DNA of 44,429 nucleotides from Puniceicoccaceae bacterium (GTDB lineage Bacteria > Verrucomicrobiota > Verrucomicrobiia > Opitutales > Opitutaceae): NCBI GenBank assembly GCA_007695295.1, contig REEB01000104.1, positions 1-44,429 of the forward strand, written 5' to 3'. The notes under the pieces are model-generated. The model was given only the letters and a program-made list of their open reading frames with translations. It was not told the DNA's origin and searched no databases. How positions within the stretch are numbered: position 1 is the first letter of the stretch; each line of letters starts with the position of its first letter. Below are positions 3,819-21,517 of this stretch, piece after piece. The position numbers were made by a program, and so were the translations under genes.

Positions 3819-4057
3819 TTCCCCCGGTTCGGGAAAAAGCAGCCGGAGTCGGTCCGACGCCGAACACGGGCCGGCAAAGCCCGTATCCGGGGCTCCGGTG
3901 ACTTGAGGAACTCCGTAGTTTGGTTCTTGCTACAGGACCACAGCCATGGCCGGTGCCGAAGCCCGGGCTCCGGTTGCTGATCCGACCAAAAGGTTGCGGC
4001 GACAATGGTTTTCCTACAGGGTGCTTTCCTCTTCACCAACCCAACCGAATCGTTCTC

Positions 4058-5401
4058 ATGCACCACCTCTCTCGTTCACTCAGGGCCGCCACTTTCATCT
4101 GTCTCGGCGGCGTTTTCCTCGCACCTGCGGCAACTGCCTCGGACCCCGTAGCCGAGGCGGTTCAGCAGTTCAGGCAAGCCACCTCCACTCTCCCCACTCC
4201 CCAACGCGACGACCGCGAAGCCGTGCAAGTCTGGTCCGATGGCCGACGCCAAGCCGCTGTCGACATCCTCGATTCCTTCGACTTTGACCGGATCGACGCC
4301 GAAACCATCGCCGGCCTCAGCAACGCCCCCCACAGCCTCATTCAGATCGCCGGCCGAACCTCCGAAGCCGTGGAGCGACTCGATGAACTGAGCCGCTTGA
4401 GCACTGCCGAAGGCGCCCGGGCGCTCATCGTCCACCTGCGCTTTCTGCCCTCCGTCGCCCGCGGGGCCGATGCGGATGCACAGCGACAAGCGCGCACAAA
4501 CCAGCACGACCACCTCACCCGCCTCCTCGAGCACCCCGGACTCCGCGAAGCGCTGCCCACCATGGCCGGCGACGTCTTCCAGTTTTTCCGTCGCATCGAT
4601 TCGGATGTGCTCCTGGAAATCGCCCCGAAACTCACGGGGTTGCCGGGATTGCTCAGCACTTCCACCCCTCCGGAAGAAGCCGCCCCCCTGCGCTTTCTGG
4701 TCCAGGCCGTTCTCGATCTGGAGGATCGTATCGATCCCTCATTGCGCGAAGGCATCCGGACCGCGGCCAGCAATGCCGCCCGCCGGATCCTTGCCACCAA
4801 CGAAGACCACACGGCCCTGACCCAGACCCTCGAGTTCATCGATGGCGCCTTCGCCCGTGATGAACTGGTCGGCCACCCCGCGCCCGAACTCCACTTCTCC
4901 TGGCACACCCTCGATGACAACTCCGTCCAGACGCTCTCCGACCTCCAAGGGCAGGTCGTGGTCCTCGATTTTTGGGCCACTTGGTGCGGGCCCTGCGTGG
5001 CCAGTTTTCCCGATGTTGCCCAACTCCAGGAGCACTACGAAGGCTATCCGGTTGTAATCCTTGGTGTGACCAGCCTGCAGGGACAACACATCTCCCGACC
5101 CGGGGGGCTGGGCGGCCCCATAGAGCGCATCGCCACCCGCGATGATCCCGAACGGGAATTTGAGCTCATGAAGTCCTTCATGGAACAGATGGACATGACT
5201 TGGCCGGTCGCCTTCAGCGAAGAGCGCGTCTTCAACCCGGACTACGGGGTGCGGGGCATACCTCATGTCGCCATCATCGATCCGGCCGGCGTGGTGCGTT
5301 ACCGCGGACTGCACCCAAGCTCGCGGGTCACCCCCCGGGAGGAAAAACTCGGCATGATCAACGGCCTGCTGCAGGAATTCGACCTGCCCCACCCCCGCTG
5401 A
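4058..5401 (+). CDS. Secreted TlpA-like thioredoxin-domain protein
   Basis: A 447-residue protein with a signal peptide (start MHHLSRSLRAA, cleavage near APAATAS). About 270 residues of helical, family-unassigned sequence come next, then a C-terminal thioredoxin fold (about 280-440). The active site is W309-C310-G311-P312-C313 inside VVLDFWATWCGPC, and a cis-Pro loop occurs in GIPHVAIIDP. This is the TlpA/ResA class that exchanges disulfides in the periplasm. The open frame reaches back to 3920, but only the ATG at 4058 gives a signal peptide. The last codons and stop lie in a 37-bp sequence repeated at 9647-9683. Target proteins are unknown; no strict operon partner is adjacent. Confidence 0.9.
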   Translation: MHHLSRSLRAATFICLGGVFLAPAATASDPVAEAVQQFRQATSTLPTPQRDDREAVQVWSDGRRQAAVDILDSFDFDRIDAETIAGLSNAPHSLIQIAGRTSEAVERLDELSRLSTAEGARALIVHLRFLPSVARGADADAQRQARTNQHDHLTRLLEHPGLREALPTMAGDVFQFFRRIDSDVLLEIAPKLTGLPGLLSTSTPPEEAAPLRFLVQAVLDLEDRIDPSLREGIRTAASNAARRILATNEDHTALTQTLEFIDGAFARDELVGHPAPELHFSWHTLDDNSVQTLSDLQGQVVVLDFWATWCGPCVASFPDVAQLQEHYEGYPVVILGVTSLQGQHISRPGGLGGPIERIATRDDPEREFELMKSFMEQMDMTWPVAFSEERVFNPDYGVRGIPHVAIIDPAGVVRYRGLHPSSRVTPREEKLGMINGLLQEFDLPHPR

Positions 5402-5407
5402 GGCAGG
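5371..5407. repeat. 37-bp direct repeat, left copy (3' end of tlpA-like gene)
   Basis: This stretch covers the final codons (QEFDLPHPR), the TGA stop and 6 bases beyond. It is repeated at 9647-9683 with a single mismatch (C at 5396, G at 9672). The two copies bound the McrBC genes. The repeat contains an inverted CCTGCC...GGCAGG pair (5384-5389 and 5402-5407) that could fold as a hairpin. It may be an attachment site or a long target duplication. Confidence 0.85.
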
Positions 5408-5704
5408 TGGCTCCGCCCCTTGGTGCGGCCGTTTCCAGCAATGAGCACAGTTGCCACCGTTTTGACGGTTTCCAGCGATACCATCCTTCGGCAAAAGGCA
5501 GGCCAGCGTCCTGAACCGAGGACAACGAGCTTCTTGCCGGACTAATTGCACCTTCCGTTCCCGGAATGACCCGGATGCCTGCGTTGGTTCGATTCGAGAA
5601 CCGGACCACCGGAGAATGGCATGCGCTGATGGATACTACACCGGCTCCTCGGCCCGGAATGAAGATGGCTTGAAATAATCCAATCCGAATGTTGCCATGA
5701 CCCC
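5408..5704. other. Intergenic segment inside the left edge of the restriction island
   Basis: About 300 bases without a credible gene on either strand; the short open frames lack family features. It must contain the mcrB promoter, but no convincing -35/-10 pair was identified. A small imperfect dyad, GGTTC-N7-GAACC, lies near 5587-5603. Confidence 0.5.
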
Positions 5705-7816
5705 ATGGTCAAAACCTTGGAAATCTCGGCGGATGCTGCCAACCGGCTGAAGGTAAAGTTTAAAAAGGTGTTTCCGGACTTTTCCTCGTTTGAAGTTCCT
5801 GGGGAGGATTTCATGAACAACGAGCTGAGCTATAAGGCAAAACTCCTCCAGAAATTCCAGGAATCGATGACCGAGGCGCGGATGCGCAAGCTGCTGGATC
5901 AGAACAATGGCAGCGAAATTATCGCGAAATTGGAGCAGTACGGAAATCAGTTGGCCCATTTCACGTCTTGGAACAAGACATTTGGCAAAGACAACGAGAC
6001 CCGGACAGCCACCTTGTCGACATTGTTCGAAACCACCCGTGGGCCTTGGAGCGGTGCCTCAACTCTCGAACCACTCTTTCTTTGTTTTGGGCACCACGAC
6101 CTAAAACCGGATTGGGGAGCATTGTCGGTGGCGCTCTGGCTCTTCCGACCGGAGGACTACTTTCCCATCAAAATTTCCGCCTTCCGATCGATAGCCAAAA
6201 GCGAACTCGGGCTAAAACTTGCACCTGGCGCACCGAATCCTGAAAACTACGCCGAGGTGATGGACTTCCTGGAGGCCTTTCGACAGGTGCTTCGGAAATG
6301 GAAGCCCAAGAGCCCCGTCGATGTACAATCGGTTCTCTATGCACTGTCGTATAAGCACCTGAAACCCATGGCCTCCCCCTTCGATCGCATTTTCATCGAT
6401 CGAAAGCAGGCCCATGAGATTTTTGCTCTTTTCCGTGAGGGGATGGAGCGACTACCGTTGGACTTGAACCAACCTGACGATCCCAGGATTGCCATTTCTC
6501 TGCTAACAAATGGCAACGCCTCAGCAACCCCGGAACAGATACAGCTTGTCTTTGGAAAGTGGCCGCTCATCAGGTTTGCGCAGTTGGAGACCGGCGACCA
6601 CGGATTAGAGTTCAAGTGCCTTCGCTCGCTGGCTTTGGAGAGCGGTGAAATCCTCGAAGGTGAAAACAATTCATCTATTTCCAACGCAGACGACAAGGAA
6701 GTGGCTTGGTTGCGGATCAAACCAGAGGAGATGGAGGGCAACAAGGTCCGCAAGGTCTTTCATGACAGCATGCAGCACATGGGAACTCAGTTTCGGGATT
6801 GGAATGAGCCTGCCGACCGCAGACATCACATCCCGGAATTATTTGCCGCTCTTAAGGATACCAAGAAACTCAAGGCTCTACTGGACAACGGCCTGCAGGA
6901 GTCTCACTCCGTGAAGGCTCAACAGAATGACTCCCAATCTTCCACCAGACGCTCCCTGACGTTTACCGAGGCCATGGGGGACCTGTTCATGCCAGTGGAG
7001 GATTTCCAGAAGATCGTTGAGACCTTGCGGCGCAAAAAGAACCTCATTCTTCAAGGTGCGCCCGGCACCGGCAAGACCTATGCCGCACGACGAATTGCCA
7101 CCGCATTGATGAACGAGGAGGACTCAGAGCGTGTTTGCATGATCCAGTTTCATCAAAGCTACAGCTATGAGGATTTCATCCAGGGCTGGCGCCCGAACGA
7201 AATGGGCGGTTTCTCCCTCCGCAACGGTCATTTCAAGGTGTTCTGCGAACGCGCGGCAGAGGATCCGGCCCACCCGTATGTCTTCATCATCGATGAAATC
7301 AACCGGGGAAATCTCAGCCGCATTTTCGGAGAAATGATGGTTTTGCTCGAGGTGGACAAGCGGAAAGAAAGGATGCCGTTGACGTACCAACCGGATACGG
7401 ATTTCGAAGTCCCCGAGAATGTTCACCTGCTCGGACTAATGAACACCGCGGATCGTTCCCTGGCGGTGGTCGATTACGCGCTGCGGCGCCGGTTTGCCTT
7501 TGCCACCCTTCCGCCACGCTTTGATGCCCCCAAATTCTCCGAAGTCCTGAAGTCAAAAGGGATCTCCCCTCAACTCATCCAAAGCATTCAACAGGTGATG
7601 ACTAATTTGAACCAGGAGATCGCCAAGGATACGGAGCAACTTGGCCCAGGGTGCCGGATCGGACACAGCTTCTTCGTGCCAGTTTCTGCTGTGTCCGACG
7701 AGGCGGCTTGGTACCGCGATGTCATCGAGTGGGAAATTATTCCCTTGCTCGAAGAATACTGGGTTGATCAGCCCGACCGTGTCGAGAAAGAGAAGCATAG
7801 GTTACTGAATCCATGA
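5705..7816 (+). CDS. mcrB: McrB-like AAA+ GTPase of a modification-dependent restriction system
   Basis: A 703-residue protein. The C-terminal half is the McrB motor: Walker A GAPGTGKT (451-458), Walker B FIIDEINRG (D530/E531), and N580-T-A-D583 in MNTADRS, the element tied to guanine nucleotide choice in McrB. An arginine-rich DYALRRRFAF sensor region follows. The N-terminal 430 or so residues are helical and match no DNA-reading domain I can name; in this family that part recognises the modified base. E. coli McrB is much shorter. Its stop overlaps the mcrC start as ATGA (7813-7816). Base composition is visibly more A/T-rich than the genes on either side, consistent with horizontal gain. 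Confidence 0.9.
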   Translation: MVKTLEISADAANRLKVKFKKVFPDFSSFEVPGEDFMNNELSYKAKLLQKFQESMTEARMRKLLDQNNGSEIIAKLEQYGNQLAHFTSWNKTFGKDNETRTATLSTLFETTRGPWSGASTLEPLFLCFGHHDLKPDWGALSVALWLFRPEDYFPIKISAFRSIAKSELGLKLAPGAPNPENYAEVMDFLEAFRQVLRKWKPKSPVDVQSVLYALSYKHLKPMASPFDRIFIDRKQAHEIFALFREGMERLPLDLNQPDDPRIAISLLTNGNASATPEQIQLVFGKWPLIRFAQLETGDHGLEFKCLRSLALESGEILEGENNSSISNADDKEVAWLRIKPEEMEGNKVRKVFHDSMQHMGTQFRDWNEPADRRHHIPELFAALKDTKKLKALLDNGLQESHSVKAQQNDSQSSTRRSLTFTEAMGDLFMPVEDFQKIVETLRRKKNLILQGAPGTGKTYAARRIATALMNEEDSERVCMIQFHQSYSYEDFIQGWRPNEMGGFSLRNGHFKVFCERAAEDPAHPYVFIIDEINRGNLSRIFGEMMVLLEVDKRKERMPLTYQPDTDFEVPENVHLLGLMNTADRSLAVVDYALRRRFAFATLPPRFDAPKFSEVLKSKGISPQLIQSIQQVMTNLNQEIAKDTEQLGPGCRIGHSFFVPVSAVSDEAAWYRDVIEWEIIPLLEEYWVDQPDRVEKEKHRLLNP

Positions 7817-9318
7817 CGCGTCGAATACCCATTCGGAATCTCTATTATCTTCTGCTCTATGCACTGGAGCTCGATCCTCTGAGAGGTCGCGTTCCAAGCA
7901 GGATCACGAACGCGCCGGATCTCATCAATTTCTTCGCCCTGCTTCTGGCCCTCCAAGTCCGCACCCTTCGGAACCGCGGATTGGACCGCAATTACGTTGA
8001 GCAGCGGGAAGAACTCGGCCTCCTGCGGGGCAAGCTGGATTTCCACGCCAGCAGCCGCCGGCTAAGCCGCCGAACTTCCAGCATGATCTGTGAATTTGCC
8101 GAACTCAGCGTCAACATCCTCTCCAACCGGATTGTCAAAACGACGATAGAAGGTCTGCTTCGTCGTCAGGATCTCGACCGGACAAGCCGTGACGCGCTGC
8201 AACTTCCCCGGGAAATGCTCAGGCGGGTTGACGTCATTCCATTGACTCCGTCGGTGTTTCACCGCGTGGCCTACCATCGTAACAACCGCCACTACCGGAC
8301 CTTGGTCAACCTCTGCCGCTTGATTGCCCGGCACTCCATGCCAACGGAAGAAGAAGGCGATCACGCCTTTCACGGCCTCGAGGAAAACCCGGAGATGCTT
8401 CACAGCATCTTCGAAAAGTTCGTGCGCAACTTTGCCACCATCCTCTGTCCGGAAGGCAGGGTTTCGTCCAGTATTGTCCAGTGGAACGGCGACGGCCTGG
8501 ATCTGCCGTCGCGAGCGGCTCTGCCAGTGATGAAAACTGATTTGTCCATGTGCTTTCCGCACCGCAACCTCATGCTGGACTGCAAGTTTTATCGGGAGGC
8601 CCTCACCATGAACTTTGATCGCGCCAAGCTTCGATCGGCGCACTTGTACCAACTCCATTCCTACTTGACCAACCAAGCCAGGGCACCGGGCTGGGAAACG
8701 GCCGCGGGCATCCTGCTCTATCCCGAGGTGGACGAAGAATTTGATTTTTCTTACCGGATCAGCGGCCACCCCATCCGTGTCACCTCGCTCAACCTCAACC
8801 AAGACTGGCCGCTGATTGAGCAGCATCTCCGCGATATCCTTCTAACCGTACCTGGAGAAAAGCGTCAGCTCTGGGTTGAAAATGCCCGTCTTGCTCCTCA
8901 TCCATTTGACCGCAACTGCAACACATGGTTGCATGTGAAGCTCGGAGGACAATGGTTTTCCGCTGGCGAAAAGTTCAGCATTCTCGAATCCGGTTGGGCT
9001 GTCTACAACAGCTGCGCTCTCGACGAATCGACGGCGGGTTGGATTCGGCGGAATGGCGAACACCGCCCGGCGGATCATGAGACCCCTGCCCTCCGTTCCA
9101 ACGGCCACATGCTCATAACCAGCCATCCGGTTCTGGTTGCCATGGCACTGCGCAATTGCCAGCATAACAACGGCGAGCCGATGCCCATTTCAGACGGTGC
9201 TCCCGTGATTCCGACCTTTCGGGAATCCGTCCAAGAAGTTCTGAATCGCACAATCAAAAATGCGTGGAATAGAATTCATGCCGACAAGGTGCCTGGTCTC
9301 AAGCGGTGGAGCGAATAG
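7813..9318 (+). CDS. mcrC: McrC-like nuclease subunit
   Basis: A 501-residue partner of the McrB-like motor. It opens with RIPIRNLYYLLLYALEL, the usual McrC start, and contains a PD-(D/E)xK-type site: D243 in KTDLSM, then D256-C-K258 in MLDCKFY, with the spacing expected for McrC. McrC joins McrB rings, stimulates GTP hydrolysis and makes the double-strand cut in modified foreign DNA. It is longer than E. coli McrC because of an extra 120-150 residue C-terminal tail (after about GEKRQLWVENARLAPH) that I cannot assign. It is translationally coupled to mcrB and is the last gene before the right-hand repeat. Confidence 0.9.
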   Translation: MTRRIPIRNLYYLLLYALELDPLRGRVPSRITNAPDLINFFALLLALQVRTLRNRGLDRNYVEQREELGLLRGKLDFHASSRRLSRRTSSMICEFAELSVNILSNRIVKTTIEGLLRRQDLDRTSRDALQLPREMLRRVDVIPLTPSVFHRVAYHRNNRHYRTLVNLCRLIARHSMPTEEEGDHAFHGLEENPEMLHSIFEKFVRNFATILCPEGRVSSSIVQWNGDGLDLPSRAALPVMKTDLSMCFPHRNLMLDCKFYREALTMNFDRAKLRSAHLYQLHSYLTNQARAPGWETAAGILLYPEVDEEFDFSYRISGHPIRVTSLNLNQDWPLIEQHLRDILLTVPGEKRQLWVENARLAPHPFDRNCNTWLHVKLGGQWFSAGEKFSILESGWAVYNSCALDESTAGWIRRNGEHRPADHETPALRSNGHMLITSHPVLVAMALRNCQHNNGEPMPISDGAPVIPTFRESVQEVLNRTIKNAWNRIHADKVPGLKRWSE

Positions 9319-9646
9319 GCGCTTTCGGGCTTCCCAAGCGCATCCGCCCGAGGCATTTCAGCCAAGCCATTGGATTCAGCTTCGGAAACCAGAGCACGAC
9401 GAGGCTCCGCTGGCGCCACAAAACCGGCCAACGGCCAACCGTTTGGCAGCATCCCGTTATCCAGTTGTTTTGGAGATCCAGCCAAACCCTCCCGCTCCTT
9501 CGGCCTCATGAAATGGAGGCCCGATGATTCGCTCAGTCCACCATAGCGGCTGAACACCAAAACCAGGACGGGGAAGGGGGAATGATTTCACCGTACCAGC
9601 AAAGGAGGACAAGGTCCATGAGCCGATCCTCCGCAGTGTTCTTTGG
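9319..9646. other. Gene-free right flank of the restriction island
   Basis: About 330 bases between mcrC and the right repeat. Both strands stay open for 70-95 codons, but the translations have no recognisable family, start signal or composition of a real protein. It may be a degraded mobile or dispersed element carried with the island. No terminator with a T-run was seen. Confidence 0.4.
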
Positions 9647-9683
9647 GCAGGAATTCGACCTGCCCCACCCCGGCTGAGGCAGG
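9647..9683. repeat. 37-bp direct repeat, right copy (detached tlpA 3' tail)
   Basis: This repeats 36 of 37 bases of 5371-5407, including the reading frame for QEFDLPHP and the TGA stop, although no tlpA-like gene precedes it. The detached copy marks the right boundary of the inserted McrBC segment. No integrase gene lies between the copies. Confidence 0.85.
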
Positions 9684-9704
9684 CGGCCGGGGGCTGCAAG
9701 AGGC

Positions 9705-9726
9705 GGGCCGCTCAGCTTCGCGGCCC
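9705..9726 (-). terminator. Possible hairpin terminator of the polysaccharide lyase gene
   Basis: A 7-bp perfect stem, GGGCCGC / GCGGCCC, with an 8-base loop lies just beyond the lyase stop codon. The following leftward sequence is only modestly T-rich, so intrinsic termination is uncertain. Confidence 0.35.
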
Positions 9727-9732
9727 GGCCTG

Positions 9733-12444
9733 TCAGGGTTCGCGGATGGCTTTGATCCGGATGAACACAGCCGGACCGGCCCCGTCCGCCGCCAGCTTCA
9801 CTTCCAATTCACCGTCGACGGCGGTAATCTGCTCCTCCGCCACCGGCACCCATTCCTGGAGGTCGCCGGACTGCTGGATCTCCAGACGGGCATCGGCCCG
9901 GGCCCCGGCGAAGGGCACCCGGAGCACCAGTGCCCCGTCCGCCGCCAACTCGGGCTCGAGCAACCGGCCCGCCGGCTCAAGCGGATTGAGGCCGGTCAGG
10001 TATTTGAGCAGGTTGGGCCAGCCGTCCTCGAGGGGCTGGAAAAAGTCGGCGGCCACCCCGGTATTTTCAGTCGTGCCGAAGTGCAGGTGCCGCCAAGCCT
10101 GCAGCTCCGTCCAAGTCTGCACGGTAGCCGTGGCCACGGGAGAATCCGCAAAGGGCGTCCGCGCGAAAACGCGGTAGAAAAACACCGTGCCGGCCGGCAG
10201 GCCGTCTTCGGCAAACGTCTCCGCATCCCCAGGCAGCTCCGCGACCAAGGTCCAGTCAGACTCGCCTTCGGCCCGCCGCTCCACGTGGTAAGCCAAGGCA
10301 TTGTCGACTCCGTCCTCCCAGTCCAATTGTATCCATCCATCGGCGACAACGGCGGCGGTCAGGCCGGTGGGGGCGGAGGCGCCGGGACCGACCCGGCGGA
10401 GCAGCCAGGGCGGTACTTCCGCCGCATCGTCGCGTCCATCCCGGTAAGGAACCACCGTGCGCTGCCCGTCGTACGGGGGGAGGTCCGCCGCCACCGCGTT
10501 GACCGCGGCCAGAGTCCACTCCCCGGACGCGCGGCTGAATGCAACCACATCGGTCTCCCCGCCGGCAGTGAGCGTGAGAACCCCGTCTTCGACCGACACC
10601 TGGGGCGGCGGCCCTCCGGACGATGTGGGGTAAAGCACCGTCAGCAGGGTGCCTTCATCCGCCAGGCGCCGGTAGGCGACATGATTGAGGGCGGCTCCGG
10701 ATCCCAGGCTGCGTTGGAACGCATCCACTCCCCCACCGATCAGGTACAGATCCCTTTGTTGGCCGACAATGCGGACCGCATCGGTGCCGGCCTGCAGGGG
10801 ATGGGTGGTTTGAAAGCGATGCTCAAACTGAACCGGCTGGGCGGCCGCCAAGTCATCGAGCAACACGACAAAGCGCCCCCGCACCATGACGAGGTGGCGG
10901 ACGGCCCGGGTCAATTGGACGGAAGCCGGGTAGAGCGGCGCGATCTCCGCCGCAAGATAGTGAAACCCTTCCCCCGAGCCGAAATGCAGGTAGTCGCCCC
11001 GGGGCGGCGGCCCGCCGGTCTGCTGGCCTTGCCCGTTGACCAGCAGGGTGGACTGAAACGCGCTGCCAAGGTGGTTGAGCGACGGTTCGAGGTGGATGAG
11101 GCGCTCGTTGCCGACGAGGAGGACAAAGGCGCCGACATCGCCCCGGTTGTGGGCCGCACCGCCACTGAAGGCCAGGTAGAGGTCGCCGGACTGGAGCACG
11201 GCATGGCCCGCGTCGCGGAAAAGCACGGCTTCCTGGAGTTCGGGGCGGGCCTCTCTGTACAGCGAGGGGGCGTCGCGCCGCCAGATGAAATAAAGCGGAC
11301 TGGCGGCATGCCAGTAGAAGCGCTGCCCGCCGTTGTCGGCCGCCCAGCGCAGGAGCCGGTCGCCTCCCGGCACCATGGAGTCGGTCAGTGCGGCCCGCAG
11401 GCTGGAAGGGCCGCCTTCATTGCGGCCGTCGAGGCTCCAAAGCCCCGCACCCCAGTTGAAATGCATTCGGCCCAAGTTGGCGAAATGCAGGTCCGGAGCG
11501 TGCATGTAAACATCCCAGTAGGCGCCGAGGCGATCGTCGGCCAGCTCCCGAAGCAGCCCGGAGAAGCCGCCGAAAAACCGTTGGTGGGCTGCGGCCGCCA
11601 TGAGCACGTACTCGATCCCATAGTTGTTGTAGGTGACTCCCTCGTGGCCTCCGCTGTCGGCCAGAAAATGCGCCCGCAAAGCCGGCTCGAGGTGGTGGTA
11701 GCCCAGCTCGGCGGCCGCACGCGCCTCCGGGGAAACGCCATAAAACGCCAGGGCGGCCAGAATGCTGCCGCCATGGCAGACCCCGCGCCAGTTGTTGACG
11801 GGGTGATTGACCCACCAGTTGGGCGAGAGGTTGGGATTGATGGAGGAAAGGTAGGGATTGATGCCTTTCGCCACCGTGGCATCCCGTAGTACGGTGCGCT
11901 GGGCGGGCGTCAGCACATCATGGCACCAGTCGTACACAAACGCCATTCCGGTGCTCTGCTCGGAGGTTTCCAGATCCGCCCCCCGGTTCCAGACAAAGCC
12001 CGTTCCCCAAGTGTTGAGGGCGGCCACGGCCAAAGCGCCTTCGATGGCCCGCTCGGCATAACGGACGTCGCCGGTGATGATGTAGGCAAAACCAAGCAGG
12101 GCGCTGTCGCCTTGGAACAACCGGGGATTGGTCGAAGGCGATTGATTGAGCAGGGAGTTTGCCCGGATGAGTAGTCGGTTCCAGCGCGGCAGGAAGGCGG
12201 GATCCTGCACCCGCGCCTGGAGCGCGGGAATGTCCTCGGCCGAGAAGAAGAGATAGGGGTGCTGCAGGTCCGTCCCCGGCGCTTCCATGGGAGAAGCGAC
12301 CGGTGGAGGGCTTGTCCCGGCCGGGGAGGAAGCCAGGGCCGAGCCGGCCGGCAACACCAGCAGGACGGCAACAATTAGATTAAAACAAACGCTCTTTCGC
12401 CAGGGGCTGGAAACGCCGGAGGAGGATACAGGATGCAGGTTCAC
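9733..12444 (-). CDS. Secreted heparinase II/III-like polysaccharide lyase with FN3 and C-terminal module
   Basis: Domains in order: signal peptide (WRKSVCFNLIVAVLLVLP to GSALA); an alpha/alpha-toroid lyase domain starting HPYLFFSAEDIPALQARV; a heparinase II/III-type beta-sandwich (around GGAAHNRGDVGAFVLL); a fibronectin type III domain (PTGLTAAVVADGWIQLDW); and a C-terminal module beginning WPNLLKYLTGLNPLEP. Such lyases cleave uronic-acid polymers outside the cell; the actual substrate is not evident. The open frame continues to 12687, but that ATG would overlap the start of the divergent gene and gives no signal peptide at the N-terminus. The in-frame GTG at 12444 puts the signal peptide about 15 residues in and is preferred (903 residues). 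No Shine-Dalgarno sequence supports either start. Confidence 0.78.
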   Translation of the reverse strand: MNLHPVSSSGVSSPWRKSVCFNLIVAVLLVLPAGSALASSPAGTSPPPVASPMEAPGTDLQHPYLFFSAEDIPALQARVQDPAFLPRWNRLLIRANSLLNQSPSTNPRLFQGDSALLGFAYIITGDVRYAERAIEGALAVAALNTWGTGFVWNRGADLETSEQSTGMAFVYDWCHDVLTPAQRTVLRDATVAKGINPYLSSINPNLSPNWWVNHPVNNWRGVCHGGSILAALAFYGVSPEARAAAELGYHHLEPALRAHFLADSGGHEGVTYNNYGIEYVLMAAAAHQRFFGGFSGLLRELADDRLGAYWDVYMHAPDLHFANLGRMHFNWGAGLWSLDGRNEGGPSSLRAALTDSMVPGGDRLLRWAADNGGQRFYWHAASPLYFIWRRDAPSLYREARPELQEAVLFRDAGHAVLQSGDLYLAFSGGAAHNRGDVGAFVLLVGNERLIHLEPSLNHLGSAFQSTLLVNGQGQQTGGPPPRGDYLHFGSGEGFHYLAAEIAPLYPASVQLTRAVRHLVMVRGRFVVLLDDLAAAQPVQFEHRFQTTHPLQAGTDAVRIVGQQRDLYLIGGGVDAFQRSLGSGAALNHVAYRRLADEGTLLTVLYPTSSGGPPPQVSVEDGVLTLTAGGETDVVAFSRASGEWTLAAVNAVAADLPPYDGQRTVVPYRDGRDDAAEVPPWLLRRVGPGASAPTGLTAAVVADGWIQLDWEDGVDNALAYHVERRAEGESDWTLVAELPGDAETFAEDGLPAGTVFFYRVFARTPFADSPVATATVQTWTELQAWRHLHFGTTENTGVAADFFQPLEDGWPNLLKYLTGLNPLEPAGRLLEPELAADGALVLRVPFAGARADARLEIQQSGDLQEWVPVAEEQITAVDGELEVKLAADGAGPAVFIRIKAIREP

Positions 12445-12685
12445 GGGGAATAGGGGATCGTCCCAGTTTACCCGGGATGCGTCCGCAAGGGGTCCGGATC
12501 GCACCGGCCGGCGTCCTTTCTGGGCGATTTGATTTGTTAATTCCGGTCTCCGGCCGCCGGTGGCGACGGCATCAGGAGCCCCCTTCCCCACTTGGCGCAC
12601 GGGCCGCGGGCACGGCCATTTGCACTCAAGGGTTGCAATTGTTTTGAAACCACCGTAACCGCTTACCCTCCTCTCCTTCGTTGCC

Positions 12686-15600
12686 ATGACGATCCTCCTA
12701 CCCCGTCAAATCCGGATGCTGTTTTGGGCTCTGGCCCTCCTGGGATTCGCCGCAGGGGCCGGGGGACAATCCGGCCCGCCAACCGCAGACCATGTGCTGC
12801 GGATCAAGCTTTCCTCCCCGGCTGCGGAACAGGTGCGTTCCCATGGGGTGCTGCGGTCCGCCACGGACACCCCAGCCCGCCTGGGTCTCGCCGCGGTCGA
12901 CCGCCTCAACCAACGCCACGGAGCCGTCTCCGTGCGCCCGCTCTTCCGCACCCCGCCCGGCTTCGAGGAGCGCCACCGCGCCTTCGGGCTCGACCGCTGG
13001 TTTGAGGTCACTTTCAACGGCCCCCGCGAGGTCCTCGCCCTGAGCGCGGAATACGAGAATTATGAGGAAATCCAGGTGGCCGAGCCCATTTACGAGAAGA
13101 CCACCCTCCAGGATTTTCCCGACGACCCCCGCTTCGTCCAACAATGGAGCCTGCGTAACGTCGGCCAAAACGGTGGCGCCCCGGGGGCGGACATTTCCGC
13201 GCTCGCCGCCTGGGACTTGGAAACCGGCCAGCCCGATGTGGTCGTCCTCGTGGTCGATTCCGGCATCGATGCCGCCCACCCGGACCTCGCTCCCAATCTC
13301 TGGATCAACCCGAACCAAGGCCCGGAAAACGGCTACGACGGCGACCTCCACGGCTGGAATTTCGTCAACGACAACAACCTCATCAACGACACCAACGGCC
13401 ACGGCACCCAGGTCGCCGGCATCATCGCGGCCGCCACCAACAACGGCACCGGCATCGCCGGCATCGCCGGGGGCAGCGGCCAGGGCGACGGCGTCCGGCT
13501 CATGATCGCCCGCACCTTCGCCACCAACAATGCCAACGGCGGCTTTGCCGAGGCCCTCGTCTACGGGGCCGACAACGGCGCCGTCATCGCCAACAACAGC
13601 TGGGGCTACACCCAGCCCGGCGTCTACGAGCAGGTCGTCCTCGATGCCATCGACTATTTCATCGCCAACGCCGGCTACGATGCGGCCGGAGAGCCGGACG
13701 GCCCGATCCAGGGCGGAGTGGTCGTCTTCGCCGCCGGCAACAGCGGCAGCTCGGATCCCTACTACCCCGCCTTTTACCCCCCGGTCGTCGCGGTCGCCTC
13801 CACCACCCGCAACGACTTCAAGTCGGTCTCGTCGAATTTCGGCGACTGGATCGACCTCGCCGCCCCCGGCCTCGCCATCCACACCACCCAGCGCAACGGC
13901 GGCTACACCACTTCCTCCGGCACGTCCTTCGCCGCCCCCCATGTCGCCGGGGTGGCCGCCCTCATGGCGAGCCGGTTCCCAGGGCTCCCCGCCGATGTAT
14001 TGGTCCATCGGATACTGATGACGACTGATCCGATCGACGCCCTCAACCCCACTTTCTCCGGCCTGCTCGGGGCCGGCCGCCTCAATGCCGCCCGCGCCCT
14101 CGACGAAGATCCCCTCGCCCCGCCCGCCGCGATCGACGACCTCACCGCCGAGGAGATCCGCCAGGACCGCCTCCGCCTCGTCTGGACCGCCCCGGCCAGC
14201 GGCTCCGGCGCCGGCCAGGCCGCCGCCTATGACCTGCGCTTCTCGACCGGGCCGATCGACGAGACCAATTTCGCCGAAGCCGCTCCCGTAACCGGACTGC
14301 CCGCGCCCGCGCCCGCGGGCACGACCCAGTCCGTTGTCGTGACCGGCTTGTCACCAGATACCGAATTCTGGTTTGCCCTCCGCTCCCGCGACTTTCTCGG
14401 CAACTACTCCGGCCTCTCCAATCCCGTCGCCGCCACCACCCTCTCCCCGCCGGAAGGCTCTGTCCTGCCGGCTTCGCTCGACGAATCCCTCGCCACCGGC
14501 ACCAGCCTTGAGCGCACGGTCACCTTGTCCAACACCGGGGCCGGACCGATGGACTTCACCGTGGAGGACAGCCTGCCAGGCTGGCTCTCCGTCCACCCCG
14601 CATCCGGCGCCCTCCCGGCCGCGACCAACCTCGAAATCACCGTCACCTTCGATGCCACCGGACTCGCCAACGGAAACTACGCCGCGGAGCTGACCTTCGC
14701 CACCGACGATCCCGCCACCCCCGTGTTGACGGTGGCCATCGCCCTCACCGTCACCGGCGGCTTCCCCGTGATGGAACTCTCCCCTCCGGAGCTCGACTTT
14801 GGCTCGGTCTTCATCGGCTATCCCCGGAGCCTCCATGCCGTCCTCCGCAATCCTGGCACCGACGTCCTTACCGTGACCACGGTAACGGCTTCCGGAGCCG
14901 GCTTCTCCGCCAGCGGCGATGGATTCACCCTTCCGGCCGGCGCGGAGACGGAAATCGAGGTCGTTTTCGACCCGCCCGATGAAGGCCCCTTCACCGGCAC
15001 CCTGACGGTCGCAGGGGACGCACCGGACGACCCCGAGCTGAGCCTCACCCTCGCGGGCGAAGGGCTCATCGCCCCGTCCGCGGTCGTCACCCCGGCGGCG
15101 TTCGAGGTAACCCTGGAGCACGGCCAAATCATCGAGCCGGAACTCACCCTCTCGAATCTCGGCGGCAGCCCGCTGCTCTTCACCATCGAGGTCGAGCAGG
15201 GCGATCAACTCTCCATCGCCCTTGGTTCGGCGGAAGCCGCGGAGCCGGCCCCGGCCGGAATCGACCGCGTCCTCCCCGTTGATCTCGTTCATGACGACGG
15301 CACCCCGGAGTCCTCCATCGGGCTGGCCTTCGGCGGCGAGTTTCTCTGGTTCCACCGCTTCACCCCGCCGAAGTCCGAGTTCCCCTTCGCGCTCGACCGG
15401 GTCGAAATCTACTTTGCGAGCTACTCCGGGGTCCAGCCCGGCGAAACCTTCGACCTCCATCTCTTCGCTGGCGGCAACCTTGATGCGGCCACCGAGCAGC
15501 GCCTGCGCTTGCCGTCCATCCCGGTGGAATCGCTCGATGCCTGGACCTCCATCCCCCTGGATACGCCGCTGGAGTTTCACGAGCCCGGCGACGTCGTTAT

Positions 15601-18600
15601 CGGGGCGGTCAACCGGGAGGCCGGCCGCAACGCGTTTCCCGCCGCGCTCGACGAATCCTCCCCCACGCAAACCAGCTCCTGGATCGCGGCCTACGGCGGC
15701 AATGTCCCGGATAACCCGACCTTCCCCGCCACCAGCCTCTGGGGGCTCATCGACAACTTCGGCTATCCCGGCAACTGGCTCCTCCGCGGCCATGGCTACC
15801 GGATCTATATCCGCCCGTCCCTCACTGCGGGCTCGGTCCCGCCGGGCGGGGAAACCACCACCTCGATTCTCATCGACGGCTCCGAGCTGCTGGCCGGCAC
15901 CTACGCCTTCACCGTCCGCATCGCCACCAACGATCCCGAAAATCCCCTCATCGAAATTCCCGGCACCCTGACCGTGACCGGCGATCCAGTCATCGAAGCC
16001 GACCCCGCCGAGTTGGACTTCGGCCCGGTCATCGTCGGAGCGACCGCCGGGCAGGTCCTCCACCTCCGCAACACCGGGCCGGCCGTGCTCACGCTCCACG
16101 ATCTCATGCTGGCGGGCGAGGGCTTCAGCCTCGATGGCGCGCCCGCCATCCTTGCTCCGGGCGAATCACTCGCCGTCACCGTCTCCGCCGCCCCTTCGCA
16201 AACGGGTCTGTTCAGCGGAAGCCTCACCGTCCTCAGCGACGACCCCGCCACTCCCGAGCTGGTCATCCCCCTCTCGGCCGAAGGCATTCCGCCCCCGGTG
16301 ATTGCCGTCACCCCCGAAGCGCTGGCGGCCACCATCACCCGGCTGGAGGAAACCAGCCGCACCCTCACCATCCACAACACCGGCGAAGGCCCTCTCCTCT
16401 ACGCCATCGAACGCCGCCTCGGGCTCACCCACGGACTGCCGGTGGCGGACGAGACCTCCCTTTGGGAGGATCCGGATTACGGCGTCGTTTTCATCCTCGA
16501 CGACGGCACGGTGGAAAACGCCGTCGGGCTCAACGGCGGGGAGCAGTTCATCTGGGGCAACCAGTTCACCCCGGAGCCGGGCGAGTACCCGTTCCTGCTG
16601 GAAGAAATCCACCTTCTCTTCGACGCCATGACCGATGCGGAGGTCGGGATGGCGCTGGACCTGTTCGTCTACCAGGTGCCGGATGGCAATCCGGCCAATG
16701 GAGCGGATCTTCTGCTCGCCCTGCCCGCCCGCCAAGTCGAGCAGGTCGGGGACTGGTCGGTCTACCCGCTGCAGCAACCGCTCTTGCTCGATGGTCCCGG
16801 GGATATCCTCATTGCAGTGGTCTTTCGCGAACCGGTCTTCACCGGCTTTCCGGCCGCCATCGACCAAAGCTCGCCCAGCCGGGGGCGCTCCTGGATCGGG
16901 CTCTACGATGGCGATGCGCCCGAGTTGCCCACCCTTCCCGTGCCCGGCAGCTGGGGCACGATCGACTCCTTCGGCCTGGCCGGAAACTGGCTCATCCGCG
17001 GCTATGGTTCGCGCCGCTTTCTCACCGCCGAACCGCCCGCCGGTCTCGTCCCGCCGGGTGAGTCGCGCGAGGTGGAGGTCGGCCTCCGGGGACCCGGCCT
17101 CACGGTCGGCCCACTGACATTCGAGCTGATCGTCCACAGCAACGATCCCGCCCGCCCCGAAGTCCTGGTGCCGGTCGAGCTCACCGTCACCGGCACCCAG
17201 CGGCTGGTCCTCGCCCCGGAGGAAGCGGTCTTTCCCGAGAGCCTCTCCGGGGAAACCGCCGAGGTCGTGCTCCGCTTCGAAAACCCCGGCCAGGACCCGC
17301 TCCATGTATCCGAAATTCACCTTCAGGGCGAGGGCTTCAACTTCGACGACACCGCCTTTGTCCTCCCGCCGGGCGGCCACCTCGAGCGCACGCTGGCTTT
17401 CTCGGCCTTCGATCCGGGTGACTACGCCGGGGAACTCACCCTCGCCAGCGACGACCCCCAGCAGCCGGTCCGGATCATCCCGCTCCAGGCCCGGGTGGTC
17501 GAGCCCGCCGTCGCCGTCCTCGGCCCCGTGCGGCTGAGCGGTTCGGGCCAGGCCGGCGACCCCGTGACCCTGGCCCTGGAACTGGTCAACGAGGGCGGCG
17601 CCGCCCTCGAATTTCACCTTCTTCCCGCCCCGGTTCATGGCGGCCCCGATGCCGCCGGGACCGTCTGGCGCTCCAACCGCGAGAGCGGCGGACCAGCCTT
17701 CGACTGGATCGACATCACCCCTTTCGGCACCCGGCTCGAAACCGTGTCCGGCACCTGGGACGGCAACGAAAGCATCAACCTGCCTTTTCCCATTCCGTTC
17801 TACGGCCAGGAACGCGCTACCGCCCGCATCTCCGCCAACGGCTGGATCACTTTCGGCGACTTCGACGGCGGCGGCTGGATCCCCCGGCCGCTGCCATCCG
17901 CATTCGCCCCCCATGCGCTCGTCGCCCCTTACTGGGACGACCTCAGCCTTGCCGCCGGCGGCACCGTCCACACTTGGCATGACGACGGCCCCGAGGAGCG
18001 CTTCATCGTGCAGTGGACCGGCGCCTCCCGCACCGCGGATCCGGGCGATGAACTCACCTTCCAGGTGCACTTTTCCCCCTTCGGCGAGATCGCTTTCCTT
18101 TACCACACGGTCGAGGTCTCCGCTCACACCGCCTCCGTCGGGCTCACCGCGGACGACGGCTGGACGGGGCTGCCGGTGGCATGGGCCGAGGCTTTTGCCG
18201 AAGCCGGGGTGGCCGTGCGGCTCCTCCCGGAAGCTTCCTTCGCCGATGGGTTTTCGCTCTCCGGCAGCGTGCCCGCAGGCAGCGCGCTCACCTTCGACCT
18301 GGTTTTCCCAACCGCCGGCCTCAACGCCGGGATCCACCTGCAGGATCTCGTCCTTTACCTCAACGACCCCGCACTGCCGGAGCAACTCATCCCGGTCCTC
18401 CTCGAGGTCTTCGGAGAACCGGCCATCAACGTGCAGCCCGGCATCCTGGACTTTGGCACCACCGTGGCGGGTTCGACGGAGGAGCGTCTCCTCACGGTCT
18501 CAAACCCGGGCACCGATGCACTCCAGCTCACAGCCGTCACCACCTCACACCCGTTCTTCAGTGTTCCCTTCGAGCCCATCGCGATTGCTCCCGGCAAAAA

Positions 18601-20098
18601 CATCGAGCTGCCCGTTTCCTTTAACCCGTCACAAGCCGGCGAATACAGCGGCACCCTCACCATTGCCAGCAACGCTCCCGCCCAATCGACGGTGCAGCTC
18701 CTCGTCCGCGGGGTCGCCACACCCGCGCCCGACCCGACTTTTGTCACCCGCAGGCTCCCGCGCTGGTATCCGCCCGGGCGCGCGCTTTCCCTGGCCGAGG
18801 ACAACCCCGTCCGCCTCCTCGCCGACCCCAAACCCGGCACCCACGCCTATGCGGTCGAGGACACCCCTCCGGCGGGCTGGACCGTCGATCCGGACTCCAT
18901 TTCACACCAGGGACGCTTCGATGCCGTCACCGGCCGGGTCAAGTTCGGGCCATTCATGGACGGTGAAGTGCGCGAGCTGACTTACGATTTGCTCGTCCCC
19001 CTCGACCAGCTCGGCGAGGTCGAGTTTGCCGGCCGGGCCTCCGCCAATGCCGTTTCCAGCCCCATCGGCGGCGACACGGTCATTGGTTTCAACCCGCGGC
19101 ATCCCGCGGACGTTTCCGAAGACTCATTTGTGCTCACTCTCGACGAAGTCACCGGCTATGCGGCGGCCTGGAAGCAGGGGCTGCCGTGGCCGGCCGAGCC
19201 CGCCGTCATCCCCATCAGCTACGTCACCCGGGGCGGCACCCTCTGGCAGGCTGGCGAGGCCTACCGCTTCGACCCCGCCGCCGGTGATCCCCCGCTCTGG
19301 TGGACGCCCGACGAGCCCGGCGCCGGGGTCAGCGACGGCTCCGAGCCCTCCGCCCAAGCCGGCATGCCGCCAACCTTCCTCATCGACGAACCCTTCGACG
19401 TTGCCATCAACGTCGACCCCTCGCCAGGCGTGCTCACTTACGCGGTCGAAGACCGCATCCCCGCGGGCTGGCAGATCGTGCCGGGCAGCGTCTCCCATCA
19501 AGGAAGTTTCGATCTCGATGCCTCCAAGGTGAAATTCGGTCCGTTTTTCGACAACCAGGCCCGCACCCTCACCTACCGCCTTCGCCCCACCCTCGGGGTT
19601 TCCGGCACGGCGGTCTTTGCCGGGCGTGTCTCCTTCGATGGCCGCGATGCCCCCGTCTCCGGGGTGCGCACCGCCCTCGGCCCGCCCGCCACCTTCCCGG
19701 AGTGGACCGCCCGCGGCGGCCTCTCCGGCCCTGCCGCCCATCCGCTTAATGACGCCTTTTCCCAAGGTCTCCCCAATCTCCTCCGCTACGCCCTCGGCCT
19801 CGATCCGGACGACAAAGCTCCCTTGGCCCGCCTGCCGCGGCTGGTTCGCGTCGACCATGAAGGCGCTCCGCGCTGGGCGTTGGCCTTTCCGATTCCGCTC
19901 GGTCCCACCGATCTCGACTACACGCTGGAGTCCGCCGAGACGTTCAGCCAGTGGCTGCCGGCCGAGCCGGAGGACGTCGTCCTCCTCCTCTCCGACCCGC
20001 AGGAAGGCCTCCGCGAAGCGCTCCTCATCGACCTCGCCACCGAACCCGACACCGATCCGCGGCGCTTCTACCGGCTGCAAGTGCGGCTCGCTCCGTAA
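12686..20098 (+). CDS. Giant secreted subtilisin-family (S8) protease with repeated anchor-type domains
   Basis: A 2470-residue exoprotein. After a signal peptide (MLFWALALLGFAAGAGG) and prodomain, the S8 domain shows D191 (VVDSGID), H239 (NGHGT), N352 (AAGNSG) and S414 (SGTSFAAPH), a complete catalytic set. An FN3 domain follows (about 480-580). Then come ASPM/Hydin-like 'LDFG' sandwich domains (from about 692, 1099, 1503 and 1911), interleaved with two related 175-residue modules (about 865-1040 and 1265-1441). A WDGN...FPIPFYG sandwich is at about 1680-1830. Two 'TYAVED..PAGW...KFGPF' units (about 2053 and 2251) flank a VTGYAAAWK segment. The end is LPNLLRYALGLDP and a tail. It probably digests external protein while attached to the cell or a polymer. 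An alternative start is the ATG at 12716. Confidence 0.9.
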   Translation: MTILLPRQIRMLFWALALLGFAAGAGGQSGPPTADHVLRIKLSSPAAEQVRSHGVLRSATDTPARLGLAAVDRLNQRHGAVSVRPLFRTPPGFEERHRAFGLDRWFEVTFNGPREVLALSAEYENYEEIQVAEPIYEKTTLQDFPDDPRFVQQWSLRNVGQNGGAPGADISALAAWDLETGQPDVVVLVVDSGIDAAHPDLAPNLWINPNQGPENGYDGDLHGWNFVNDNNLINDTNGHGTQVAGIIAAATNNGTGIAGIAGGSGQGDGVRLMIARTFATNNANGGFAEALVYGADNGAVIANNSWGYTQPGVYEQVVLDAIDYFIANAGYDAAGEPDGPIQGGVVVFAAGNSGSSDPYYPAFYPPVVAVASTTRNDFKSVSSNFGDWIDLAAPGLAIHTTQRNGGYTTSSGTSFAAPHVAGVAALMASRFPGLPADVLVHRILMTTDPIDALNPTFSGLLGAGRLNAARALDEDPLAPPAAIDDLTAEEIRQDRLRLVWTAPASGSGAGQAAAYDLRFSTGPIDETNFAEAAPVTGLPAPAPAGTTQSVVVTGLSPDTEFWFALRSRDFLGNYSGLSNPVAATTLSPPEGSVLPASLDESLATGTSLERTVTLSNTGAGPMDFTVEDSLPGWLSVHPASGALPAATNLEITVTFDATGLANGNYAAELTFATDDPATPVLTVAIALTVTGGFPVMELSPPELDFGSVFIGYPRSLHAVLRNPGTDVLTVTTVTASGAGFSASGDGFTLPAGAETEIEVVFDPPDEGPFTGTLTVAGDAPDDPELSLTLAGEGLIAPSAVVTPAAFEVTLEHGQIIEPELTLSNLGGSPLLFTIEVEQGDQLSIALGSAEAAEPAPAGIDRVLPVDLVHDDGTPESSIGLAFGGEFLWFHRFTPPKSEFPFALDRVEIYFASYSGVQPGETFDLHLFAGGNLDAATEQRLRLPSIPVESLDAWTSIPLDTPLEFHEPGDVVIGAVNREAGRNAFPAALDESSPTQTSSWIAAYGGNVPDNPTFPATSLWGLIDNFGYPGNWLLRGHGYRIYIRPSLTAGSVPPGGETTTSILIDGSELLAGTYAFTVRIATNDPENPLIEIPGTLTVTGDPVIEADPAELDFGPVIVGATAGQVLHLRNTGPAVLTLHDLMLAGEGFSLDGAPAILAPGESLAVTVSAAPSQTGLFSGSLTVLSDDPATPELVIPLSAEGIPPPVIAVTPEALAATITRLEETSRTLTIHNTGEGPLLYAIERRLGLTHGLPVADETSLWEDPDYGVVFILDDGTVENAVGLNGGEQFIWGNQFTPEPGEYPFLLEEIHLLFDAMTDAEVGMALDLFVYQVPDGNPANGADLLLALPARQVEQVGDWSVYPLQQPLLLDGPGDILIAVVFREPVFTGFPAAIDQSSPSRGRSWIGLYDGDAPELPTLPVPGSWGTIDSFGLAGNWLIRGYGSRRFLTAEPPAGLVPPGESREVEVGLRGPGLTVGPLTFELIVHSNDPARPEVLVPVELTVTGTQRLVLAPEEAVFPESLSGETAEVVLRFENPGQDPLHVSEIHLQGEGFNFDDTAFVLPPGGHLERTLAFSAFDPGDYAGELTLASDDPQQPVRIIPLQARVVEPAVAVLGPVRLSGSGQAGDPVTLALELVNEGGAALEFHLLPAPVHGGPDAAGTVWRSNRESGGPAFDWIDITPFGTRLETVSGTWDGNESINLPFPIPFYGQERATARISANGWITFGDFDGGGWIPRPLPSAFAPHALVAPYWDDLSLAAGGTVHTWHDDGPEERFIVQWTGASRTADPGDELTFQVHFSPFGEIAFLYHTVEVSAHTASVGLTADDGWTGLPVAWAEAFAEAGVAVRLLPEASFADGFSLSGSVPAGSALTFDLVFPTAGLNAGIHLQDLVLYLNDPALPEQLIPVLLEVFGEPAINVQPGILDFGTTVAGSTEERLLTVSNPGTDALQLTAVTTSHPFFSVPFEPIAIAPGKNIELPVSFNPSQAGEYSGTLTIASNAPAQSTVQLLVRGVATPAPDPTFVTRRLPRWYPPGRALSLAEDNPVRLLADPKPGTHAYAVEDTPPAGWTVDPDSISHQGRFDAVTGRVKFGPFMDGEVRELTYDLLVPLDQLGEVEFAGRASANAVSSPIGGDTVIGFNPRHPADVSEDSFVLTLDEVTGYAAAWKQGLPWPAEPAVIPISYVTRGGTLWQAGEAYRFDPAAGDPPLWWTPDEPGAGVSDGSEPSAQAGMPPTFLIDEPFDVAINVDPSPGVLTYAVEDRIPAGWQIVPGSVSHQGSFDLDASKVKFGPFFDNQARTLTYRLRPTLGVSGTAVFAGRVSFDGRDAPVSGVRTALGPPATFPEWTARGGLSGPAAHPLNDAFSQGLPNLLRYALGLDPDDKAPLARLPRLVRVDHEGAPRWALAFPIPLGPTDLDYTLESAETFSQWLPAEPEDVVLLLSDPQEGLREALLIDLATEPDTDPRRFYRLQVRLAP

Positions 20099-20160: not shown

Positions 20161-20270
20161 TAATCGTAATCCCCTTCCCCGTTCTTCTGCAGTTCCTTCG
20201 CCGTGCCTCTACGAGGCTTCATTGCAGCCTATGGCACTCGATCAGTCGATTGCGAGCAGGATTACGATTA
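20161..20270. repeat. Inverted 12-bp TAATCGTAATCC repeat pair
   Basis: TAATCGTAATCC at 20161-20172 is matched by its exact reverse complement GGATTACGATTA at 20259-20270, with 86 bases between. The left arm is preceded by a further partial unit (CGTAATCA). It lies in the 349-base gap (20099-20447) between two convergent genes; that gap holds no credible gene. The short A/T-rich telomere-like units differ from all surrounding DNA and look like a dispersed intergenic element. Confidence 0.6.
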
Positions 20271-20447
20271 AGATGGGCCGCGGGACACCTCATCCAGCAT
20301 TCGCTCCATAACCGCCCGCCCCCGGTCGCGGTCTTCCTCGGATCGACACAGGCCGCTGATGCGGCTCAGCCCGGCCCCGTCGCCGGCCGGGTTGTTTATC
20401 CGATGGATGACATCAAGGTGCCCCGTTTCTGGGCACCCACCGGTCGC

Positions 20448-21047
20448 TCAACCATCGGCGGGCGCCGTTGCACCTGCCTTGTTGCCAGTCCTAAGATCGA
20501 GCCCCAGGGAAACTTCTCCCGCAAGCCGCAGTTGCTTGTAGTAACTTTCGAGCAACTTTCGAAAGGCAAAGAAACAAAAGCCCCCGAGCAGGAAGAAAGC
20601 GACCAGCAAACCGAGCACCGCCCGCCGGTCCACCTCGTAAGTCGAACGCCAGGAGGCCGCCACCAGACCCAACCCCAGAAGGGGAAACACAAAGGTGCAG
20701 TTGCGCGCAATGCGCATGCGCGTACGGATATAATCCAGAAAGGCGCGCATGTGTTCACATTTGGTGAAAACATTCGTGCGAACCATTCCAACATCGGAAT
20801 CCGAAGCGAAATAGAGGGCACGAATCTTACGGTCGACGGGCTTCGAAAGATGGTCCCAAACCCGGTCGAAAACAACGCCGAACGCGTAGGCAGAGACTCC
20901 GAGCACTGCGGCCACGATGTAGTCGGGGCCGGCGAAGAGCAATGCGATCGGCTCGGTTCCAAACACTCCCGTGGCCAACAAAAGCATGGCGGCCAAGGCC
21001 AGAACCCCGGAGACGATTATCTCGACAAAGGCATTGGTGGTATTCAT
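20448..21047 (-). CDS. Four-TM membrane protein of unknown function
   Basis: A 199-residue protein that I do not recognise. Predicted membrane segments lie at about 8-30, 38-60, 118-135 and 143-165. A basic, hydrophilic loop (about 66-115, around KPVDRKIRALYFASDSDVG and FLDYIRTRMRIARN) separates the two pairs, and the C-terminal tail is cytosolic. Codon use is less GC-rich than in the large genes around it. It stands alone: the leftward neighbour upstream ends 470 bases away and the downstream neighbour is convergent. The regular layout of two TM hairpins around a charged loop, the alternation of hydrophobic segments and the ATG start support a real gene; the function is unknown. Confidence 0.7.
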   Translation of the reverse strand: MNTTNAFVEIIVSGVLALAAMLLLATGVFGTEPIALLFAGPDYIVAAVLGVSAYAFGVVFDRVWDHLSKPVDRKIRALYFASDSDVGMVRTNVFTKCEHMRAFLDYIRTRMRIARNCTFVFPLLGLGLVAASWRSTYEVDRRAVLGLLVAFFLLGGFCFFAFRKLLESYYKQLRLAGEVSLGLDLRTGNKAGATAPADG

Positions 21048-21517
21048 TGCAGTCTGAGATCAGGGTCTGTCAGCAAAACCAGCTGAAAGCAAATTCCAAA
21101 GCCTCGGAAGTTTCAATGTTGACCCCGATTGTCCTGAGTAAGCTGCAATAAACTTGGCCGCCAGACCACGGCGGCCGTTTCTCAAGTCCAAGCCGGCCCT
21201 GTTTGCCTGCTTCTTGAGTAGTCCAGCGGTTCGACGACACAATCCAATTTCTGCAACGGCGTCGTTCTGGCGGGAATCGACGGCCGTAAACTCGACTGCC
21301 AGCGAACTCCCCCGCCTGTTGGCGGTTCGCCGGATCATTGTTCTAGACGGTGAGAGCTCCGGCGAAGTCATGCATTCAATCGGACTCCACTGCTTCAGCG
21401 CGAACCCTGGACTCCAGGTCCACCGGGGCGGCGGCTTTGATGCGACCAAGTCCTGCAAGGCCGATGGCCCCGGCCCCATGCTGTCCGATAAACAGTCAGC
21501 GGGGCCAGACCCGCCGG
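21048..21517. other. 470-bp gene-poor region, possible decayed element
   Basis: This lies between two leftward genes. Long frames are open on both strands (for example 21060-21479 leftward), but no family, signal peptide or coherent fold is apparent. The region could be a dispersed repeat or a pseudogene remnant. It should contain the promoter for the membrane protein gene at 21047. Confidence 0.4.
21156..21176. terminator. GC-rich hairpin, possible terminator
   Basis: A perfect 7-bp stem, GGCCGCC / GGCGGCC, with a 7-base loop is followed rightward by GTTTC and leftward by AAGTTTATT. It could end transcription coming leftward from the CocE-like gene. T-runs are short, so this is tentative. 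Confidence 0.35.

What the first reader, a model, noticed from the sequence alone, without database searches (positions are those of the whole stretch)
5371..9683. McrBC restriction island bounded by a 37-bp direct repeat, with no integrase
The 3' end of the tlpA-like gene (5371-5407) is repeated at 9647-9683 with 1 mismatch in 37, and the two copies flank exactly the mcrB-mcrC segment, whose DNA looks more A/T-rich than its neighbours. This could be an attachment-site duplication left by an element that has lost its integrase, or a long target duplication of the sort proposed for restriction genes that insert themselves. The repeat lets the island be deleted precisely by recombination.
Basis: partly seen in the sequence, partly recalled or inferred. 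Interest (0 to 1): 0.75.

Follow-up and report, generated by a model that had tools for sequence, protein, structure and literature searches.

The report
McrBC island duplicating a gene's end
A pair of bacterial defence genes (mcrB and mcrC) sits between two copies of the very end of a neighbouring gene (its last 28 coding bases, stop codon and 10 bases beyond), a scar showing that the pair was inserted there, but by what machinery is not known because no integration enzyme is left.

Summary
The direct repeat is 41 nt with 39 identical (5371-5411 and 9647-9687; the first 37 match 36/37). It occurs only twice in the 4.6-Mb genome, and both copies sit where GC content steps from about 64-67% to 53-58% and back. 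The first copy is the genuine end of a TlpA-like gene (its LLxEFxLPxP ending is conserved in homologues). The second is a detached fragment of that end, fused to a hairpin before a convergent lyase-like gene. So the mcrBC block (about 4.24 kb) was inserted at the 3' end of tlpA. No integrase, transposase or recognisable remnant is inside. No relative with an empty site is held, so the key test could not be run. Among 34 other mcrBC loci of the phylum, two more carry longer fragments of a neighbouring gene's 3' part on the far side of mcrBC. There the differences lie largely at third codon positions, so those copies are alleles from diverged lineages, not fresh target duplications. Best reading: att-like insertion of an integrase-less cargo island. 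Strong rival: recombination with donor DNA carrying the neighbouring gene's end. Interesting, but a new example of a known kind.

The parts
3920..5401 (+). TlpA/ResA-like thiol-disulfide oxidoreductase gene (target gene); start codon uncertain
   Evidence: Redoxin/AhpC-TSA domain at residues 317-468; C-terminal LLxEFxLPxP motif conserved in about 20 homologues
5371..5411 (+). left repeat copy: last 28 coding bases of tlpA, its stop codon TGA (5399-5401) and 10 bases beyond
5412..5704 (.). left non-coding spacer of the island, GC 0.57, no coding remnant recognised, single copy in genome
5705..7816 (+). mcrB: AAA+ motor subunit with unassigned N-terminal part
   Evidence: AAA_5 1.7e-23; NCBIfam McrB model 6.2e-92 over residues 413-701, below its curated cut-off
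7813..9318 (+). mcrC: nuclease subunit (overlaps mcrB by 4 bp), with about 157 extra C-terminal residues
   Evidence: PF10117 6.3e-29; NCBIfam McrC 2.3e-83 over residues 3-343, below its curated cut-off
9319..9646 (.). right non-coding spacer, GC 0.58, single copy in genome, no integrase remnant recognised
9647..9687 (+). right repeat copy: detached fragment of the tlpA 3' end
9688..9732 (.). GC-rich (0.80) hairpin region, inferred original downstream flank of tlpA shared with the convergent lyase-like gene (hairpin about 9701-9731)
9733..12687 (-). convergent gene, polysaccharide-lyase-like (DUF4962, below curated cut-off)
   Evidence: 27.4 bits, cut-off 28.7; weak heparin lyase HepB match

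Best explanation
The mcrBC block is a small horizontally acquired cargo island inserted at the 3' end of tlpA. Shown: a 41-bp piece of the tlpA end now lies on both sides of a 4.24-kb, GC-poorer segment that contains only mcrB and mcrC. Inferred: the ancestral order was tlpA, a single copy of the repeat, a hairpin, then the convergent lyase-like gene, 55 bp apart. The entry followed the logic of a site-specific recombinase acting on the end of a protein gene, leaving attL/attR-like copies, with the recombinase either lost since or supplied in trans. The island encodes a McrBC-type system expected to cut DNA carrying modified cytosines. Recombination across the repeat could in principle remove it and leave tlpA intact; this is not shown.
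For: Repeat confirmed, far above chance and unique in the genome. The left copy is the native gene end because its protein motif and DNA are conserved in homologues; the right copy is not preceded by tlpA sequence, and no longer tlpA remnant is found. The GC step coincides with both copies. McrC is patchy in relatives: 4 of 95, 16 of 388 and 26 of 385 genomes, the own genome included. Size and site match tyrosine-recombinase att repeats (8-60 bp, 3' end of housekeeping genes, one repeat holding the gene end) as reviewed in PMC5704250. The repeat holds an imperfect dyad, ACCTGCCCCAC-5 nt-CTGAGGCAGGT, 9 of 11 in the left copy, reached by 1% of shuffles, which is weak support.
Against: No integrase inside or beside the repeats; the genome's four tyrosine-recombinase matches are all on other contigs. 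One of the two mismatches lies at the centre of the dyad, where a crossover region should be identical; the right copy's dyad (8 of 11) is not significant. No phage, plasmid or viral contig carries the repeat. The two other flanked mcrBC loci have longer duplications that do not look like att sites. No empty site or circular form seen.
Confidence: 0.5

Rival explanations
1. Recombination-borne capture: donor DNA from a related lineage, in which mcrBC already lay next to the same gene's end, entered by homologous recombination on one side and illegitimate or single-crossover joining on the other, leaving a donor copy and a resident copy of the gene end on either side of mcrBC.
For: Two of 34 other mcrBC loci show this more plainly: L135 has about 425/349 nt of the oadB 3' end plus downstream DNA on both sides, with 8 of 8 coding differences synonymous and both copies about equally distant from the genes of relatives; L141 has a fragment of a uracil-DNA-glycosylase 3' part beyond mcrC, with third-position differences 3/3 and 7/9 in two blocks. 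Such flanking repeats are rare at control positions: 6 of 2819, all in one of 68 loci.
Against: In the window the repeat is only 41 bp, short for homologous recombination, and one of its two differences is non-synonymous (R/G codon), so the codon-position test has no power here. L141 is confounded by a rearrangement directly after mcrC relative to L140, and its third block has differences spread over all codon positions.
Confidence: 0.33
2. Insertion with long target duplication of the kind proposed for restriction-modification genes (Nobusato et al. 2000, cited in PMC3031569): the block inserted itself and copied 41 bp of target.
For: A naked mcrBC unit without a recombinase, flanked by a direct duplication of target sequence, is what that model predicts; PMC3031569 summarises long and variable target duplications for restriction-modification systems, and McrBC mobility was argued in PMC2614495.
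Against: A target duplication starts identical; the copies here differ by 2 of 41 (possible with age), and in the two comparable loci the differences suggest the copies were functional alleles before they met. No enzyme for it is known.
Confidence: 0.12
3. Assembly artefact or chance repeat.
For: The genome is a fragmented draft in 278 contigs.
Against: Chance expectation about 6e-11; unique repeat, with coherent genes and GC steps on both sides. Two misjoins at the same place would be needed.
Confidence: 0.03

Closest known systems
CIME (cis-mobilizable element) and integrase-less remnants of IMEs/ICEs (PMC5704250)
   Same: cargo flanked by short direct repeats at the 3' end of a protein gene, one repeat holding the gene's end; no integration or transfer genes
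   Different: no related integrase-bearing element with the same att site is known; only one operon of cargo; att function not shown
Insertion with long target duplication of restriction-modification genes (Nobusato et al. 2000, as cited in PMC3031569 and PMC2614495)
   Same: restriction genes alone between direct duplications of target DNA
   Different: copies not identical; in the two sister cases the copies are diverged alleles
Prophage e14 or phage 21 at icd (from memory, not tested here)
   Same: insertion at a gene's 3' end with a displaced second 3' end
   Different: those elements carry an integrase
McrBC type IV restriction system
   Same: mcrB AAA+ and mcrC genes overlapping in one operon
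   Different: McrC has about 157 extra C-terminal residues; McrB N-terminal part unassigned

Membership tests
McrBC type IV restriction system | AAA+ McrB motor followed by overlapping McrC nuclease gene | tested here: met
   4-bp gene overlap 7813-7816
McrBC type IV restriction system | cleavage of DNA with modified cytosine | not testable with these tools
   needs an assay
[quoted passage not shown]
   41 bp, left copy contains the conserved tlpA end
CIME / att-bounded remnant | no integration or transfer genes inside | tested here: met
   only mcrB and mcrC found; no remnant recognised in six-frame translations of the spacers (read by eye, no family search of them was run)
CIME / att-bounded remnant | descent from, or mobilisation by, a related integrative element using the same att sites | tested here: inconclusive
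   no such element found in phages, plasmids, viral contigs or the own genome
CIME / att-bounded remnant | empty site with a single repeat in relatives | tested here: inconclusive
   no close relative held
Insertion with long target duplication | direct duplication of target flanking the restriction genes, single in the empty allele | tested here: inconclusive
   duplication present; no empty allele available
Insertion with long target duplication | the two copies derive from one target (no prior divergence as separate alleles) | tested here: inconclusive
   window: 2 of 41 differences, no power; sister loci L135 and L141 argue against it
Composite transposon / IS-borne island | flanking insertion sequences or inverted-repeat ends with a transposase | tested here: not met
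   no other genes inside, spacers single-copy in the genome, no inverted match between spacers

The most novel reading that the evidence does not exclude
mcrBC operons in this phylum travel as naked units that repeatedly land at 3' ends of unrelated chromosomal genes and bring with them the donor lineage's copy of that gene end, a recombinase-free route of spread that looks like, and may have been taken for, target duplication.
Probability: 0.2. Interest if true: 0.65.

Novelty: new member of a known kind. Interest (0 to 1): 0.42.

Why it matters
How restriction genes without any transposase or integrase spread between genomes is an old question, and long target duplication was proposed from few genomes. 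Comparing codon positions between the two flanking gene fragments separates a fresh duplication from a meeting of two diverged alleles. Applied here to two sister loci it favours diverged alleles, so the question can be tested by computation on many genomes.

Tried and rejected
Searches for a relative with an empty site failed: relatives and family searches with tlpA and with the lyase-like protein and genome contigs gave no syntenic locus. Downstream regions of tlpA homologues all differ, so no shared insertion hotspot is visible. An McrC query in viral contigs found nothing; plasmid homologues are at most about 36% identical. No Rfam match in 5200-9900. No consensus promoter; terminator-like sites fewer than in shuffles. 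Relatives of L135 with oadB at 80-89% protein identity do not share the downstream DNA, so no empty site there either. The first control for flanking repeats had only 4 positions and was replaced. The dyad in the repeat was considered as a recombinase core and is weak.

Full report
Observation. The window holds a direct repeat, 5371-5411 and 9647-9687, 39 of 41 bases identical. The chance expectation for such a pair anywhere in the window is about 6e-11. In the whole 4.6-Mb draft genome only these two copies exist. Between them lie mcrB (5705-7816) and mcrC (7813-9318), identified by AAA_5 and PF10117 and by matches to the NCBIfam McrB and McrC models, both below those models' curated cut-offs. 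The copies do not touch the genes: 293 and 328 bp of non-coding DNA separate them.

Which copy is native. About 20 homologues of the upstream TlpA-like protein, from the same family and beyond, share the ending LLxEFxLPxP, and their DNA reads much like the first 25 bases of the repeat. So the left copy is the true gene end by position. The right copy starts abruptly, with no tlpA sequence before it, and runs into a very GC-rich stretch with a strong hairpin before the convergent lyase-like gene. Removing one repeat unit with the island would leave the two convergent genes 55 bp apart. The GC profile drops just after the left copy and recovers at the right copy. These facts together show an insertion at the 3' end of tlpA; the order of events is inferred.

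The empty site. No genus-mate is held. The best tlpA matches among 252 family genomes reach about 58-60% identity over the C-terminal domain only, and the genome-contig scan gave nothing closer.

What inserted it. The island has no integrase or transposase. The spacers are single-copy in the genome and share no similarity with each other, with tlpA or with the flank. Four tyrosine-recombinase matches exist in the genome, all on other contigs. The repeat is absent from viral contigs as an exact 20-mer, and the phage and plasmid collections give only chance-level matches. [quoted passage not shown]

Is this a habit of mcrBC? I examined 34 other mcrBC loci of the phylum; several are cut short by contig ends. 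Two have direct repeats close around mcrBC. In L135 the end of oadB and its downstream DNA (8571-8995) recur at 12391-12739, with mcrC ending 16 bp from one copy and mcrB starting about 120 bp from the other. In L141 a fragment of the 3' part of a family-4 uracil-DNA-glycosylase gene lies just beyond mcrC. At control positions in 68 loci chosen without regard to mcrBC, 6 of 2819 segments had such repeats at 60 bits or more, all in one locus. Leaving out the window, which was chosen for its repeat, 2 of 34 against 0.2% is suggestive; but the control positions are correlated, the control was not matched for horizontally acquired genes, and the loci are few.

What the sister loci say. In L135 all 8 differences in the 54 coding bases are synonymous, and both copies are about equally far from the oadB of related species. 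In L141 the differences are at third codon positions 3 of 3 in one block and 7 of 9 in a second; a third block shows no bias. A fragment copied at the time of insertion and left without function would collect changes at all positions. These fragments look like alleles that diverged as working genes in separate lineages and were later brought together. That argues against a fresh target duplication there and for recombination with donor DNA, or for elements carrying their own version of the gene end. L141 is less clean because its gene order breaks after mcrC when compared with L140.

Judgement for the window. With two differences in 41 bases, one of them changing an amino acid, the same test has no power here. 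I put an att-like insertion by a lost or trans-acting recombinase first (0.5), recombination with donor DNA second (0.33), long target duplication third (0.12).

Known background. PMC2614495 argued that McrBC systems are mobile and often linked to mobility genes; PMC3031569 summarises long, variable target duplications for restriction-modification genes. The window is a new example of this known kind, not a new system.

Noticed in passing
window 8842-9318: McrC has about 157 residues beyond the end of the McrC model (match ends at residue 343 of 501); many homologues end at about 345-390. No family was found for the extension.
   Followed up: partly
L135 8571-8995 and 12391-12739: mcrBC almost naked between two copies of the oadB 3' end and its downstream DNA, with 8 of 8 coding differences synonymous; the copies also share palindromic TACTGGTA-type motifs.
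   Followed up: yes
L141 9184-9288, compared with L140: Decayed fragment of a uracil-DNA-glycosylase gene beyond mcrC; L140 of the same genus shares the glycosylase-mcrB-mcrC block (about 92% DNA identity) but gene order differs right after mcrC, and the 5' part of the glycosylase gene is only 63-66% identical while neighbours are about 95%.
   Followed up: partly
window 12686-20098: 2470-aa open frame whose start looks subtilisin-like and which has repeated modules (repeat families spaced about 1.2 kb).
   Followed up: no
window 20250-21500 and 23000-25500: Other stretches of lower GC (0.57-0.61); the open frames 20250-21086 and 23722-25383 have no Pfam match.
   Followed up: partly
G000:C183:8208-10091 (L029): A second relative (46% identity) of the lyase-like protein in the same genome, its match read through one in-frame TGA.
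   Followed up: no
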